DNA from: a virus
IMG/VR virus record: IMGVR_UViG_3300031952_000106
Coordinates: 1 to 28,602 of that record
Length of the DNA stretch: 28,602 nt
Strand: one strand, 5' to 3'
Shown: one piece after another, positions 6,238 to 28,227 of the stretch
Position numbering within the stretch: position 1 is the stretch's first letter
Layout of the letters: each line of letters starts with the position of its first letter
Translations under genes and position numbers: made by a program
The notes under the pieces: generated by a model
Seen by the model: the letters and a program-made list of their open reading frames with translations, nothing else
Databases searched by the model: none
What the model was told of the DNA's origin: nothing

Positions 6238-6669
6238 TTATTGCTTCTTGAAGATTCTGGGGCCAGCCGTTTCTGACCCCCATTTCTCAAAAAGAGCATC
6301 CATCGTCGGATCCAGCGGAAAGCAAAAATAATTCAGAAGATCATTCGGCTTATAGAAAACGGGGATGTTGCATCTTACATGCGCGTGCATAACTTCCCGG
6401 TTGGTTCCTTTGGAATTCTCGGAATGCGGAAGAACCAACATGGCGTCACAACTATCAATCCACTCCAGACTGGCCTTATGAAACTGTTCCGTTGTTGGTC
6501 TGGCATAATCCTCTGATCTCAAAAGCGCATATACGAAATCGAGACATGGACAATACGGGGACATCCCCACTTGCCATAAATGAGTCGAGATCACCATCAT
6601 GCGGCGCATATTTTCCAGGTAATCAAGCTCCGGGCCGCTCAGCGCTCCCGCCACGTAAATCTTAACCAT
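6238..6669 (-). CDS. DUF4406 / nucleoside deoxyribosyltransferase-like protein, 143 aa
   Basis: The N-terminal strand and loop YVAGALSG (residues 5-12), the helix-strand SLEWIDSCDAMLVLP (67-81) and the GTNREV motif (88-93, Glu92) followed by NIPVFY match the layout of DUF4406 and the nucleoside 2-deoxyribosyltransferase superfamily. That superfamily acts on nucleoside or nucleotide glycosidic bonds; phage members are thought to help nucleotide salvage or modification, but the substrate here is unknown. An AGGGGG ribosome site precedes the ATG, just after a G-rich pentamer array (6687-6731). It is the last of three consecutive non-structural genes. Confidence 0.7.
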   Translation of the reverse strand: MVKIYVAGALSGPELDYLENMRRMMVISTHLWQVGMSPYCPCLDFVYALLRSEDYARPTTEQFHKASLEWIDSCDAMLVLPHSENSKGTNREVMHAHVRCNIPVFYKPNDLLNYFCFPLDPTMDALFEKWGSETAGPRIFKKQ

Positions 6670-6686: not shown

Positions 6687-6731
6687 AATCCTTGCCCTAC
6701 CTTGCCTTGCCAGGCCCCGCCACGCCCCGCC
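6687..6731 (-). repeat. Degenerate GGNNN pentamer array A (9 units)
   Basis: On the minus (mRNA) strand this spacer reads in perfect 5-base phase as nine units, all starting GG: GGCGG GGCGT GGCGG GGCCT, then GGCAA GGCAA GGTAG GGCAA GGATT. It fills the gap between the metallophosphoesterase stop and the DUF4406 ribosome site. Two sister arrays lie in the next two spacers to the right. Regular GG tracts spaced by three bases could form two-layer G-quadruplexes in RNA or DNA; that is inference. Confidence 0.75.
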
Positions 6732-6737
6732 AAAGGA

Positions 6738-7619
6738 CTAAAGCGAAATATGAATCAGCGGCCTGAAATACTTTGACTGATGAATCTGCTCAAAACTCAA
6801 ACCTATTGCCAGACTTCCAAGAGCCGAAGGAATAAGGGACTTTTGTTCCACGTACGTTCCGCGGGAACTGACGGCCGGCTCATCCAGGCTTAGCGGTTCG
6901 GTAGAGGAATATGCCAGGAGCCATGATCCAGTACGAGCAAACAATTTCGTCCGGTGGGTGTGAACTCCATCCGGGGTAATGTGTTGCTGATCGATGGGGG
7001 CAGCCACCTTAGAGTGACTATGACCCATCAGGTAAATATCCGCATCGAAAGCCTTGAGCATATTTTCAACCTTATTCAAGGTCCCACCCTGAGTTTGGGC
7101 CGATCCCGTTCCGTGATGAGCGAACAAAACGCAATCCGCCTCATGATGACCCCTGGGAACACCATCAAATTTGAAACGTACGATTGCATCCGTTCCGAGA
7201 AATTTGCTTTCCATATACCGGGCTATAAGTTGATCAGCAGATTTACCGTCCCGAAAATCGTACCGATGATTACCCTCCAGAAAGCCTATCCACCTTCCTC
7301 GGGTAGGTTGAAGCAAATCGATAAGCTTCAGGGCCCTTTCTTTCATCATGTCATCCATCAACTCTTTGGCCGAATCACGCATGGGGCCGATCAGTGCTCT
7401 CTGGGAATCCGAAAAGGCATCCAGGTAATCACCCATACCAAAGAAATAGGCCCCTCGATCCATACCCCATTCGAGATGTATCTTGAATTTGTGCTCCGGC
7501 CAATTTCGGCTTCCGTAATGGATGTCGCCAATGGGCATAATTAGAGCTTTTTGATCCTCCACTAAATCAAGTTTCTTTTTCGGATTATGCTTGCCGAATT
7601 CAAAGACAAAGTGAACCAT
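6738..7619 (-). CDS. Calcineurin-like metallophosphoesterase, 293 aa
   Basis: The signature blocks of a dinuclear metallophosphoesterase are present in order: GDIHYG (residues 31-36), GMGDYLD (61-67), EGNHRYD (115-121), AHHG (167-170) and MGHSH (198-202). These supply the Asp, His and Asn metal ligands, so the enzyme should be active on a phosphodiester or phosphomonoester. The substrate (nucleic acid, nucleotide or cyclic nucleotide) cannot be read from sequence. The start is an ATG 6 bases after AAGGGGG. The gene lies between two pentamer-array spacers with a DUF4406-like gene downstream, so a nucleotide-metabolism or defence-related job is plausible. Confidence 0.85.
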   Translation of the reverse strand: MVHFVFEFGKHNPKKKLDLVEDQKALIMPIGDIHYGSRNWPEHKFKIHLEWGMDRGAYFFGMGDYLDAFSDSQRALIGPMRDSAKELMDDMMKERALKLIDLLQPTRGRWIGFLEGNHRYDFRDGKSADQLIARYMESKFLGTDAIVRFKFDGVPRGHHEADCVLFAHHGTGSAQTQGGTLNKVENMLKAFDADIYLMGHSHSKVAAPIDQQHITPDGVHTHRTKLFARTGSWLLAYSSTEPLSLDEPAVSSRGTYVEQKSLIPSALGSLAIGLSFEQIHQSKYFRPLIHISL

Positions 7620-7636
7620 TTAACCCCCTTCCGTAA

Positions 7637-7676
7637 GAACCCTACCGTGCCACGCCATGCCATGCCACACCCCGCC
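7637..7676 (-). repeat. Degenerate GGNNN pentamer array B (8 units)
   Basis: The minus strand reads GGCGG GGTGT GGCAT GGCAT, then GGCGT GGCAC GGTAG GGTTC, eight in-phase pentamers that all start GG. It fills the spacer between the 192-aa gene and the metallophosphoesterase. As in arrays A and C, a GGTAG unit stands at or near the 3' end and a GGGGG-type ribosome site follows. Confidence 0.75.
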
Positions 7677-7680
7677 ATAT

Positions 7681-8259
7681 TCAAATGAGTTTGATTCCTG
7701 AAATAACAAACCTTCCAAATGGACCACGTTTTGCTGGTCGATAATCCCCAATCCCAATTCTGCTCCCGGCAATTTCCAAAAGAGGTTTCAAAACATATTC
7801 GGTAAAATCTTCTCCTTTTCCCAAAAACTGCGATTCCCAGCAAGTGGTAAACTCCAGTTTCCAGGTTTTTAGATTCGGACGACTCCGAAAAATTCTTTGC
7901 CTCTGAATAACCGCCGTACAGGTGAAAATTTCATAATCCGTAGTGTTGAATGGAACCATATCCGGTTCGATGTGAAAATCGCCGCAAAGAATCGGAATGA
8001 GAGCCATCTTTTTATTTCCGGGAACCTTCATTCCACTGGCTGCATGAAGAATGGTAGCGTGAATGTTGCGTGCCGGAAAGGCGATCGACTTTTTATCTTC
8101 CGTCCAGTAGAGACCGCGCTCCGCCTCATCTTCCGGGGTTGGAATCTGTTTTTTAATTCCCTTGGCCCCCACACCAACCGACGTCGGATTGTGTAAAAGA
8201 ATACCGGGCGAAACCCCCACGATGGAAACCGTCGCTTTGTTGCTGTGCAAATTCTCCAT
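7681..8259 (-). CDS. Unknown phage protein with Gly-rich C-terminal loop, 192 aa
   Basis: The N-terminus reads VSIVGVSPGILLHNP, followed by EDEAERGLYW, an AFPARNIHATILHAAS helix, and a C-terminal GIGDYRPAKRGPFGRF segment. This order (small strand with a 'GxSPxLxHN' turn, 'PA..I...L..AA' helix, Gly-rich loop) recalls ferredoxin-like RAMP folds of the Cas7 kind, but sequence similarity by eye is weak and no Cas genes are nearby. I do not assign a function. It is the first of three non-structural genes with array leaders and has an AGAGGGGG ribosome site. Confidence 0.6.
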   Translation of the reverse strand: MENLHSNKATVSIVGVSPGILLHNPTSVGVGAKGIKKQIPTPEDEAERGLYWTEDKKSIAFPARNIHATILHAASGMKVPGNKKMALIPILCGDFHIEPDMVPFNTTDYEIFTCTAVIQRQRIFRSRPNLKTWKLEFTTCWESQFLGKGEDFTEYVLKPLLEIAGSRIGIGDYRPAKRGPFGRFVISGIKLI

Positions 8260-8294
8260 TCTTCTCTTCCCCCTCTTGAGATTTTGGATTTTTA

Positions 8295-8344
8295 CTACCC
8301 TGCCCAGCCTTACCTAACCCAATCTCGCCATACTAGACCTGGCC
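8295..8344 (-). repeat. Degenerate GGNNN pentamer array C (10 units)
   Basis: The minus strand reads in phase GGCCA GGTCT AGTAT GGCGA, GATTG GGTTA GGTAA, GGCTG GGCAG GGTAG. Eight of ten units start GG, and the array ends in GGTAG like the others. It is the most degenerate of the three arrays. It separates the nozzle-like virion gene from the 192-aa unknown gene, marking the right boundary of the non-structural cassette. Confidence 0.65.
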
Positions 8345-8353
8345 CCGGAATTT

Positions 8354-9256
8354 TTACCATACAGAAGAAAAAAAATGCGTTGCATTACCGGTCTTTTTTA
8401 GAATTGCATACCCTTCGGTTTTACCGGAAACGTTATAGGTGTTTTTGGTCAATTCTTTAAAATATCCATCGGCGCCACCGAGACACACCCCATTTTTTGA
8501 AAGCCACAGAATAACCTTACCGGAAATATCCAGCCCATCAACATCCTGGGAATCGCACGTTACCGACGTTCCTAAGATGGCCGGTTTGTCTGATTTTTTA
8601 ATCAGAGAGGAATCCTTGATGTCTGCACCGGATAAGAAATAGACGTTTTGCTGATCGGAAACCCATAGACCGTTCTGGACCGATCCCATCATGGAAATTC
8701 TGGACGGAAAACTCTTGAAATTTCTGCGCTCATCCATAATTCCCGGATACATGGCGTCTGAATACCAGATGTCATTACCTCTCGCGACCAGCAACCGACC
8801 GTTGTACCAACCGATCAGGTGCCCGGCTGGCATCAAGATTTTATAGGTCATTTCGGACGGAAGGGTAAAGGCACTGAAAGTTAAGTCCTGGACATAGCCG
8901 ATGATACTCTCATTCGTTAAAAAGATTTTAGGTGGAATATCGACGTAGGACATTCTTCCCGATCCCCCGGAAGCTTGCAGGAGAGAAGGAGAATGAGCGG
9001 CATCCATGATTTTAAGGTCATTCCCATGGACGAACAGGCACACGCTTCCGTTCGACCAAAGCGAGTGTATTCGCGTTCCCGAAACGACGGCGGTTTCATA
9101 CCCTGAGCTCCGGTGCGGCATCAAGTCGTTGTCAATATCGACGTTTATGCACTCCGTAAGATAGGCCAGTCCTCTCTTAGGAACCACTCGGGCGGCATCA
9201 CTGACGTTGTTCTTGCCGAGAAAGCCTTTAATTTTTATAATCTCTTGGGTATTCAT
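8354..9256 (-). CDS. Tail nozzle / stabilisation-like virion protein, 300 aa
   Basis: Residues 27-55 (KRGLAYLTECINVDIDND followed by a RSSGYE turn) match the opening seen in podophage stabilisation or nozzle proteins of the T7 gp12 / P22 gp10 kind. Later segments such as HLIGWYNGRLLVARGNDIWYSD look like beta-propeller blades. At 300 residues it is much shorter than T7 gp12, so it would be a minimal form. Its ATG overlaps the adaptor stop (TAATG at 9256), so the two are translationally coupled, as expected for proteins that stack below the portal. Confidence 0.6.
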   Translation of the reverse strand: MNTQEIIKIKGFLGKNNVSDAARVVPKRGLAYLTECINVDIDNDLMPHRSSGYETAVVSGTRIHSLWSNGSVCLFVHGNDLKIMDAAHSPSLLQASGGSGRMSYVDIPPKIFLTNESIIGYVQDLTFSAFTLPSEMTYKILMPAGHLIGWYNGRLLVARGNDIWYSDAMYPGIMDERRNFKSFPSRISMMGSVQNGLWVSDQQNVYFLSGADIKDSSLIKKSDKPAILGTSVTCDSQDVDGLDISGKVILWLSKNGVCLGGADGYFKELTKNTYNVSGKTEGYAILKKTGNATHFFSSVW

Positions 9257-26888: not shown

Positions 26889-26908
26889 AATAGGTCTACC
26901 GTGATATC

Positions 26909-26937
26909 AATATACCAAATTAAACTTCGAATGTCAA
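26909..26937 (-). promoter_or_regulatory. Late operon promoter, TTGACA-17-TATATT
   Basis: Read leftward, TTGACA (26932-26937), a 17-base spacer and TATATT (26909-26914) form a near-consensus sigma-70 promoter. The predicted start is near 26902, about 14 bases before the GTG of the first gene. Upstream, GTGTAGATCACAC (about 26948-26960) is a near-palindrome and AAGTGT is repeated, possible operator or activator sites. The core elements are identical to the 10.27-kb promoter. Confidence 0.85.
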
Positions 26938-27526
26938 GTATAAGTGTAGATCACACAGTAAGTGTTTAAAATTATAGGGAAAAAATTATAACTTTTAAAA
27001 ACACAAAAATACACCCGTGGTAATGAACCATTCGATAATACCGAAGAGTTCATAAGAAATAATCAAAAATGATGATTTATCTAATCAATAATCAACTATT
27101 TAAAAATAAGAAAAAGAAGGCTCTATTTCTTACAAAAAAAATGAAAGTTTCGAAATTAAAAAAATTATAAATTATGAGGACTACGTGCTTGAGAGGATAC
27201 TAATGTAGTACCCGACCTCGTTGAGTAGACCGGGATCTCGACTCCCCCCCCTGACCCTGCCACCCATGTCACCCTTCGGGATTTCCATGGTCGCAGTCAA
27301 GGCCAAGCCCCCGAGAATTTCTAAACTTGAAATTCAAAACCCTATTATCTATTCGTCTTGTCGATCTGAGTCATCAAGTGGACAGTTGCCTTATAGGCAG
27401 GAAGTCGGGCTGATAAAAGCTCATCATTGTATGGACATGACGTGGATTCATCTTTCCCGGTTGCGGGTATGGTTGCGGGTAGAGCGCAGTTCCTTTTAAA
27501 ATTGTCTTTTCTCTAAGTAGAATTTT
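26938..27526. other. Gene-less intergenic region
   Basis: No convincing gene is visible on either strand. It holds the upstream promoter region, an AT-rich block (about 26.96-27.18 kb) with three copies of AAATTATA, and the 11-base direct repeat GGTTGCGGGTA at 27459-27469 and 27471-27481. A short plus-strand frame here has no ribosome site. It probably contains control DNA between the divergent late and early sides. Confidence 0.5.
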
Positions 27527-27535
27527 TTATCCACA
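27527..27535 (+). promoter_or_regulatory. Perfect DnaA box 1
   Basis: TTATCCACA is the consensus DnaA-binding site. It lies just left of the hexanucleotide array and is the first of three perfect copies within about 710 bases. Confidence 0.7.
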
Positions 27536-27556
27536 AATAGGTGATCGGGTCCACCC

Positions 27557-27608
27557 TTCTCTTTCTCTTTCTCTTTCTCTTTCTCTTTCTCTTTCTCTTT
27601 CTCTTTCT
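27557..27608. repeat. Hexanucleotide repeat, 8 perfect CTTTCT copies
   Basis: Eight perfect tandem copies of CTTTCT (27561-27608) are preceded by a partial copy. It is a pure polypyrimidine/polypurine tract that could adopt triplex or slipped structure, and its copy number is likely to vary. It lies between DnaA box 1 and the 12-bp repeats. Confidence 0.95.
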
Positions 27609-27634
27609 AGGTACCTACCTGGTAACCAGACCCA

Positions 27635-27680
27635 TAAACGGGCTGTTAAACGGGCTGTTAAACGGGCTGGTAGACAGGCT
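27635..27680. repeat. 12-bp direct repeats (TAAACGGGCTGT)
   Basis: Units begin at 27635 and 27647 (identical), 27659 (last base differs) and 27671 (partial, diverged: TAGACAGGCT). Tandem 12-bp units beside DnaA boxes and an AT-rich element look like protein-binding repeats of a replication origin. Confidence 0.85.
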
Positions 27681-27720
27681 ACATCCCAAAACTCTCATTT
27701 CTTCTTAACGAAAAGCTTCC

Positions 27721-27770
27721 TATATTTATATATATCTATATATTTATTAATTATAATTGAATTTATTAAG
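27721..27770. other. AT-rich putative unwinding element
   Basis: Only three of 50 bases are G or C, with tandem TATAT steps and TTTATTAA motifs. It lies between the 12-bp repeats and the iterons, where a DNA unwinding element would be expected. Confidence 0.6.
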
Positions 27771-27994
27771 AAGTCATCTTCGAGGAGACCCGGCTGGTCG
27801 GCATTGCTTCTCGTTTTTCCTTTATTTTCTTCTTTATGAATACTTAATAATTACATCCTAATACAACATAGTGTGTCATTATTGCAACACGGTGTTGCAA
27901 ATTTGCAACAATGTAAGTATGTGATATGTTTGTTAGTTCAGCAATCAGCAATAAACCCAGTGTTTATTTTGCAACACATATAGGGAATATGTCT

Positions 27995-28010
27995 TTTCGT
28001 TAAAACGAAA
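27995..28010. other. Stem-loop TTTCGTT-AA-AACGAAA
   Basis: A perfect 7-bp inverted repeat with a 2-base centre lies within the iteron region. It may be an operator or a structural element; no other evidence. Confidence 0.45.
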
Positions 28011-28183
28011 GGTCTTATAAGGCTATGATATTATAGGCAAACTCATCATTTTAAAATCTTCAGCTCAAGTGTATAAATGGCATGTGTATTGCTTGTTATA
28101 GATTGCCACCGGGAGAAATCTGGGGTGATGCAAAAACGACACACTAAGAAAGGAGAAAGAGTCTAAGTTGGGGCAAAAATGGC

Positions 28184-28192
28184 TGTGGATAA
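28184..28192 (-). promoter_or_regulatory. Perfect DnaA box 2 (reverse)
   Basis: TGTGGATAA is the reverse complement of the consensus DnaA box. It lies between the second and third good iterons and is oriented toward box 3. Confidence 0.7.
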
Positions 28193-28227
28193 AACAAGCT
28201 TTTTAGTTCTGATACGTACTATAAAAA

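What the first reader, a model, noticed from the sequence alone, without database searches (positions are those of the whole stretch)
6687..8344. Three consecutive gene spacers made of in-phase degenerate GGNNN pentamers
The spacers before three successive non-structural genes (192-aa unknown, metallophosphoesterase, DUF4406-like) each consist of 8-10 pentamers in exact 5-base phase. Almost all start GG on the mRNA strand, each array has GGTAG at or near its 3' end, and each is followed by a GGGGG-type ribosome site. No other spacer in the window has them. The unit content differs between arrays while the phase is kept, so selection seems to act on the 5-base GG periodicity rather than on exact sequence. 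Possible roles: two-layer RNA G-quadruplex leaders controlling translation, binding arrays for a pentamer-reading protein, or recombination seams that let these genes move as cassettes.
Basis: partly seen in the sequence, partly recalled or inferred. Interest (0 to 1): 0.8.

Follow-up and report, generated by a model that had tools for sequence, protein, structure and literature searches.

The report
Phage RNA-guided VIPR locus
The odd five-letter repeats between three phage genes are guide-RNA genes of VIPR, a recently described RNA-guided weapon that phages use against rival phages, and the unknown gene between two of them encodes the guide-binding protein.

Summary
Three spacers on the minus strand (6690-6731, 7637-7676, 8295-8344) are in-phase pentamers beyond shuffled controls. 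The unit is better written GGYNN (Y = C/T) than GGNNN. The arrays belong to a known system, VIPR (Viral Interference Programmable Repeat; preprint PMC13142463, 2026). The "192-aa unknown" (7681-8259) is its protein, Vipr: its family profile finds the solved SUSP1 Vipr (PDB 36pp, E 1.1e-42), and its AlphaFold model is a Csm3/Cas7 RAMP (Z 12.9). Degenerate GGYNN arrays are widespread in phage contigs; 93 of 116 array contigs carry the same protein. All 12 cultured carriers examined have pentamer arrays beside it. Among 77 phage loci chosen only for a relative of the neighbouring metallophosphoesterase, two carry Vipr, and exactly those two carry arrays. So the arrays are almost certainly vrRNA guides: GGY is the protein-bound scaffold and the NN letters spell a gapped DNA target. 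Less usual here: each vrRNA sits directly before a ribosome site, and the operon includes a PolD-DP1/Mre11-like nuclease fold, found in the same order in one other VIPR phage. No target was found, and the guides are short, so activity is unproven. New member of a known kind.

The parts
7681..8259 (-). vipr gene: 192-aa RAMP (Cas7-like) guide-RNA-binding protein; N-terminal strand with I-x-G motif, C-terminal G-loop GIGDYRPAKRGPFGRFVI
   Evidence: Profile from the 63-member family hits PDB 36pp SUSP1 Vipr, E 1.1e-42. AlphaFold model pLDDT 93.5; Csm3/Cas7 fold, Z 12.9. PHROG 4652, unknown function.
8295..8344 (-). vrRNA array before vipr: 10 pentamers, 8 start with GG; ends GGTAG
   Evidence: Two units (AGTAT, GATTG) off pattern.
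7637..7676 (-). vrRNA array between vipr and the metallophosphoesterase: 8 GGYNN units, ends GGTAG GGTTC
6690..6731 (-). vrRNA array between the metallophosphoesterase and the DUF4406 gene: 8 GGYNN units plus GG, ends GGTAG GGCAA GG
6738..7619 (-). metallophosphoesterase, candidate accessory gene (vap): PolD-DP1/Mre11-like nuclease fold with metal motifs GDIH, GMGDYLD, GNH, HHG, GHSH intact
   Evidence: phrog_7339 'DNA repair exonuclease' E 2.2e-15. Model pLDDT 88.1; VIA Z 16.2 to PolD DP1 (6t8h_A), 13.4 to Mre11. Same order vrRNA-vipr-vrRNA-MPE-vrRNA in L306; beside arrays in L092.
6238..6669 (-). DUF4406 / nucleoside 2-deoxyribosyltransferase-like gene, downstream of the last array; probably a neighbour, not a part
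   Evidence: PF14359 E 4.7e-5, phrog_355 E 8.4e-11. No relative near Vipr in the other loci held.

Best explanation
The three spacers are vrRNA genes of a phage-borne VIPR system and the 192-aa gene between them encodes Vipr. Shown here: the arrays; their phase and GGY/NN make-up; Vipr homology and its Cas7/Csm3 fold; the tight linkage of arrays to Vipr in unrelated phages; constant 3' end units within a genome. Inferred from the published work on SUSP1 (PMC13142463): Vipr subunits line up along the array RNA, holding GGY and presenting each NN pair. The NN pairs then read double-stranded DNA as NN-x-NN with one skipped base, and the complex silences the target, usually in a competing phage or satellite. 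Inferred only: one Vipr per pentamer, the arrays are transcribed with the operon and processed from it, GGTAG-GG begins the constant 3' handle (leaving about 6, 6 and 9 guide pairs), and the nuclease-fold gene inside the operon is an accessory protein.
For: Array statistics. In 394 degenerate arrays on 116 contigs (window included) position 3 is C or T in 98%, position 4 leans to purine, position 5 is near even, and arrays lie on one strand in 114 of 116 contigs. In bacterial genomes the same kind of pattern is mostly perfect microsatellite. 87 of 116 array contigs carry the window protein's family in the held DNA, 6 more elsewhere in the record. Family = solved SUSP1 Vipr, E 1.1e-42; Cas7/Csm3 fold. 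SUSP1 itself shows the same arrays with my finder. All 12 cultured carriers examined have arrays. Felixounavirus and relatives: four vipr+ phages have arrays; four vipr- phages have none of 5 or more units; one vipr- phage has two orphans. Independent sample: of 77 metallophosphoesterase loci 2 have Vipr and exactly those 2 have arrays; whole records agree for arrays, 2 of 48. 3' end units are the most constant within a contig. VIPR code and function: PMC13142463.
Against: The guides are short: about 8 clean units against 9-16 described, and the array before vipr has two off-pattern units. The long pattern from that array (20 bases) hit nothing in 2.9 million viral contigs; an 18-base version hit once and not in wobble phase. 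The other two arrays gave 8 and 11 hits, which do not stand out from chance. There are no RNA data. No 3' tail as long or structured as that of SUSP1 is evident, and Rfam finds nothing. The window Vipr alone matches SUSP1 Vipr only weakly (E 0.0067); the profile is needed.
Confidence: 0.92

Rival explanations
1. The locus is a VIPR in decay: the protein is kept but the vrRNAs are worn down and no longer target anything.
For: Short arrays, two broken units in the array before vipr, no target hit. Vipr-less Felixounaviruses keep worn remnants with the vrRNA tail, so decay does occur.
Against: Two arrays have no broken units, the vipr gene is intact with the family motifs, and strand and phase are preserved.
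Confidence: 0.2
2. The arrays also act in cis: bound Vipr or the G-rich leader controls translation of the gene that follows.
For: In the window all three arrays end within about 35 nt of a ribosome site and start codon, as in L121, L031, L123 and L306. Over all contigs 111 of 394 arrays (28%) are followed within 70 nt by a ribosome site and start, against 306 of 1970 random positions (16%).
Against: Most arrays elsewhere are not followed by a gene start, and many contigs stack arrays in tandem.
Confidence: 0.12
3. Two-layer RNA G-quadruplex leaders.
For: (GGN3)n fits the formal two-quartet pattern.
Against: It does not explain the fixed pyrimidine at position 3, the linkage to one protein family, or the constant 3' units. 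In a diverged array set with its own Vipr the code is DGYNN and most units have no GG at all.
Confidence: 0.02
4. Recombination seams that let genes move as cassettes.
For: The arrays flank genes; in humlepung the vipr pair is missing and two arrays remain.
Against: Arrays follow Vipr, not gene cassettes in general. The variable NN letters give poor homology for recombination.
Confidence: 0.03

Closest known systems
VIPR systems (Vipr + vrRNA), PMC13142463 / bioRxiv 2026.04.26.720920; Escherichia phage SUSP1 as the characterised example (PDB 36pp)
   Same: Homologous Vipr protein; GGY/NN pentamer arrays beside it on one strand; phage-borne; compact locus.
   Different: Shorter arrays; each array directly before a ribosome site; a metallophosphoesterase and not the ~146-aa gene of SUSP1 follows vipr; Vipr about 16-38% identical to the other members aligned. 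Which of the seven types it is could not be assigned, because the supplement was not readable here.
Type III CRISPR-Cas Csm3 / Cas7 backbone subunits
   Same: Fold (Z 12.9, 164 residues, rmsd 3.7), Gly-rich loop, expected filament on a guide RNA.
   Different: 10% identity; no CRISPR repeats and spacers; 5-nt unit and not the 6-nt period of Cas7; single RAMP.
MPE + Vipr contigs L306 (IMGVR_UViG_3300049927_000040) and L092/L324 (IMGVR_UViG_3300033143_005875)
   Same: vipr, vrRNA arrays and a related metallophosphoesterase in one operon; L306 has the window's exact order.
   Different: Vipr proteins are distant from the window's; L306 MPE has lost some metal motifs (GDIQ, GHH, GHTT).

Membership tests
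VIPR | Vipr: RAMP homologue with single RRM core, G-loop and thumb, about 20 kDa | tested here: met
   Profile hit to SUSP1 Vipr 36pp E 1.1e-42, Cas7/Csm3 fold, 192 aa. The thumb was not examined separately.
VIPR | Alternating GGY/NN array(s) next to vipr, NN hypervariable | tested here: met
   Three arrays, same strand as vipr.
VIPR | 9-16 YNNGG repeats per vrRNA (as reported for characterised vrRNAs) | tested here: inconclusive
   8 units in two arrays and 10 (two broken) in the third. Among 394 arrays counted here the range is 6-47 and 58 have 6 or 7 units, so the published range is not a strict limit.
VIPR | Invariable 3' tail after the repeats | tested here: inconclusive
   All three arrays have GGTAG at or near the 3' end; beyond it the sequences differ apart from the ribosome site. 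End units are the most constant part in other contigs.
VIPR | Accessory gene (vap) beside vipr | tested here: inconclusive
   A nuclease-fold gene lies between two arrays, in the same order in L306; not shown to be one of vap1-6.
VIPR | Location mainly in phages | tested here: met
   The window is a virus record with terminase, portal, adaptor and head-closure genes.
VIPR | Targets readable by the 1-nt skip rule | tested here: inconclusive
   No hit that stands out from chance in viral contigs; true competitors may not be in the collection.
VIPR | vrRNA expressed and bound by Vipr | not testable with these tools
   Needs RNA sequencing and pull-down.
CRISPR-Cas class 1 | Identical repeats separated by unique spacers | tested here: not met
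   The arrays are degenerate pentamers with no repeat-spacer structure.
CRISPR-Cas class 1 | Cas7-type RAMP fold | tested here: met
   the fold alone does not make membership.

The most novel reading that the evidence does not exclude
A phage-carried VIPR in which an active PolD-DP1/Mre11-like nuclease is the accessory, so that a phage uses gapped RNA guides to cut rival DNA rather than only to silence it. The preprint reports predicted nucleases only in types III and V, which are enriched in host defence islands.
Probability: 0.2. Interest if true: 0.65.

Novelty: new member of a known kind. Interest (0 to 1): 0.42.

Why it matters
VIPR is a guide code that skips letters and may be older than CRISPR, and in the library searched it rests on one preprint. 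This work reaches the same system from raw sequence, ties PHROG 4652 to Vipr, shows that arrays and Vipr travel together in a sample not chosen for arrays, and adds a branch with no cultured member among the sequences compared, in which a nuclease-fold gene sits inside the vrRNA operon. That makes the question of cutting versus silencing testable.

Tried and rejected
Close relatives of the window by megablast and by single-protein scans: none. BLAST with a bare array against phages: no match, probably masked as low complexity. Literature by "pentanucleotide" and "pentameric" terms: nothing relevant. Target prediction: full patterns of the three arrays in viral contigs gave 0, 8 and 11 hits. 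Some are in wobble phase (portal-like peptide ELVTIITP in L260, L261, L263; peptide FLFLSPTP in L266, L267, L269, L272), but the number of independent families is about what chance gives, and the search wrongly included the likely constant GGTAG end. Self-targets in the window: none above shuffles (the perfect 3-skip matches there are only the arrays themselves). Rfam on the array region: nothing. Hammerhead ribozymes or other Rfam families at gathering threshold in 12 array sources: none. DUF4406 as accessory: not found near other Viprs. Assigning one of the seven VIPR types: not possible without the supplement.

Full report
WHAT IS THERE. The window is a 28.6-kb virus record with terminase, portal, adaptor and head-closure genes on the minus strand. 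Between the head-closure gene (8354-9256) and further genes of the same strand lie three genes, each preceded by a short spacer made of in-phase pentamers: 8295-8344 before a 192-aa gene, 7637-7676 before a metallophosphoesterase, 6690-6731 before a DUF4406 gene. The best in-phase GG count over eight units at period 5 is 6, 8 and 8; 200 dinucleotide shuffles of the whole window reached 4 to 6. No other spacer has more than 3 GGY in phase. The third base of every GG unit is a pyrimidine, so the unit is GGYNN.

HOW COMMON IT IS. With the window it holds 394 degenerate arrays on 116 contigs of roughly 38-71% GC. Position 3 is C (74%) or T (24%), position 4 leans to purines, position 5 is near even, all 16 NN pairs occur, and the arrays of a contig lie on one strand in 114 of 116. 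In bacterial genomes the ten-unit pattern is mostly perfect microsatellite; the few degenerate arrays lie mainly on metagenome-assembled contigs.

THE PROTEIN THAT GOES WITH IT. The gene beside the arrays often ends in the motif GxGDxRPxxGRFxV, and so does the window's 192-aa protein. A profile grown from the window protein finds a member in 87 of the 116 array contigs in the DNA held and in 6 more elsewhere in the record. The family is PHROG 4652 and has no Pfam entry. The AlphaFold model (pLDDT 93.5) matches Csm3 and other Cas7 proteins. A profile search of the PDB sequences hits one entry well: 36pp, SUSP1 Vipr protein, E 1.1e-42.

INDEPENDENT TESTS OF THE LINK. Cultured phages that carry the protein (Gordonia, Mycobacterium, Pseudomonas, Escherichia, Vibrio, a cyanophage) were fetched; all 12 have arrays near the gene, 11 with GGY units (only one short run in prophiBWHA-1) and the Vibrio phage with GCANN units. 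In Felixounavirus and relatives, vipr+ phages wV8, SUSP1, LMP34 and H12 have arrays; vipr- phages FO1a, EC6, GEC_vB_B1 and Michonne have no run of five or more units (the first three keep a worn remnant); vipr- humlepung has two orphan arrays. The cleanest test is a sample chosen without reference to arrays: of 77 viral loci that encode a relative of the metallophosphoesterase, two have Vipr and exactly those two have arrays. In the 48 whole records searched, two have arrays, and both have Vipr. A third record has a diverged Vipr with a diverged array code, DGYNN.

WHAT IS KNOWN. The full text of PMC13142463 describes VIPR: Vipr, a phage RAMP, binds vrRNAs of 9-16 YNNGG repeats; the NN letters recognise double-stranded DNA with one skipped base between pairs; the complex silences genes of competing phages; an accessory gene (vap) is usual; there are seven types. 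The window fits in protein and array. My finder recovers arrays at the SUSP1 locus, which serves as the positive control.

WHAT IS PARTICULAR HERE. (1) In a tree of 100 Viprs the window groups with L121, L152 and L026 (96/82, but all on long branches, so the place is unsure), a group with no cultured member among the rows compared. (2) Each array stands directly before a ribosome site; L121 and L152 show the same habit and carry a ParB-like 227-aa gene there. (3) In the window that place is taken by a metallophosphoesterase whose model is closest to archaeal PolD DP1 (Z 16.2, rmsd 3.5, 208 aligned) and then Mre11 and LpxH (Z 13.4), with its metal motifs intact. L306 has exactly the window's order vrRNA-vipr-vrRNA-MPE-vrRNA; L092/L324 has MPE, arrays, vipr, array. 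As the three Viprs are distant, the pairing looks like more than one event, but the gene is also common without Vipr (75 of 77), so an accessory role is only a candidate. (4) Within contigs the last array units are the most constant; by that rule GGTAG-GG in the window is the start of the constant end, leaving 6, 6 and 9 guide pairs, fewer than described.

TARGETS. Searches in viral contigs with the 1-nt skip rule gave 0 (20 bases), 1 (18 bases, not in wobble phase), 8 and 11 (16 bases each) hits. The targets remain unknown, and the possibility that this VIPR is in decay is kept as the main rival.

VERDICT. Real feature, already explained in kind by the VIPR preprint, here as a new, uncultured member with a possible nuclease accessory.

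Noticed in passing
L363 (IMGVR_UViG_3300018080_000104, 181500-187000): A diverged Vipr (L363:2609-3283, minus strand) with about 15 arrays on the same strand in a relaxed code DGYNN (first letter mostly A, T or G; C only 6%) and a constant tail near GCACACTTTAC. A GGYNN search misses it.
   Followed up: partly
L364:2477-2920 (minus strand, same 195-kb contig): A second short Vipr-like protein (147 aa) in the same virus contig, without arrays that the period-5 scan could find.
   Followed up: no
L249 (Vibrio phage 1.266.O) 5936-5980, 6738-6800, 6843-6900: Arrays beside Vipr use GCANN units instead of GGYNN, so the scaffold letters differ between lineages.
   Followed up: partly
L280 (Escherichia phage humlepung) 1659-1831; L278, L279, L285 in the spacer after the DNA ligase: Orphan vrRNA arrays without vipr (humlepung), and worn single-array remnants with the vrRNA tail in vipr-less Felixounaviruses (FO1a, EC6, GEC_vB_B1).
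   Followed up: partly
L012, L028, L077 and 20 more array contigs: 23 of the 29 array contigs without Vipr in the held DNA lack PHROG 4652 in the whole record, some over 70 kb: orphan guides, diverged Viprs or fragments.
   Followed up: partly
L121:3731-4414, L152:5437-6120: A 227-aa ParB-like gene stands right after a vrRNA array in two phages whose Viprs group with the window's; a candidate accessory gene for that branch.
   Followed up: partly
window 26889-28227: A 1.3-kb AT-rich stretch without a clear gene, with a perfect (TTCTCT)x8.7 repeat at 27557-27608 and a 12-base tandem repeat (TAAACGGGCTGT) at 27635-27680; possibly an origin or regulatory region.
   Followed up: no
L245 (Medea1), L247 (LittleE), L251 (ODay): As in the window, VIPR sits among virion structural genes in several phages, next to tape measure or other tail genes.
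   Followed up: no
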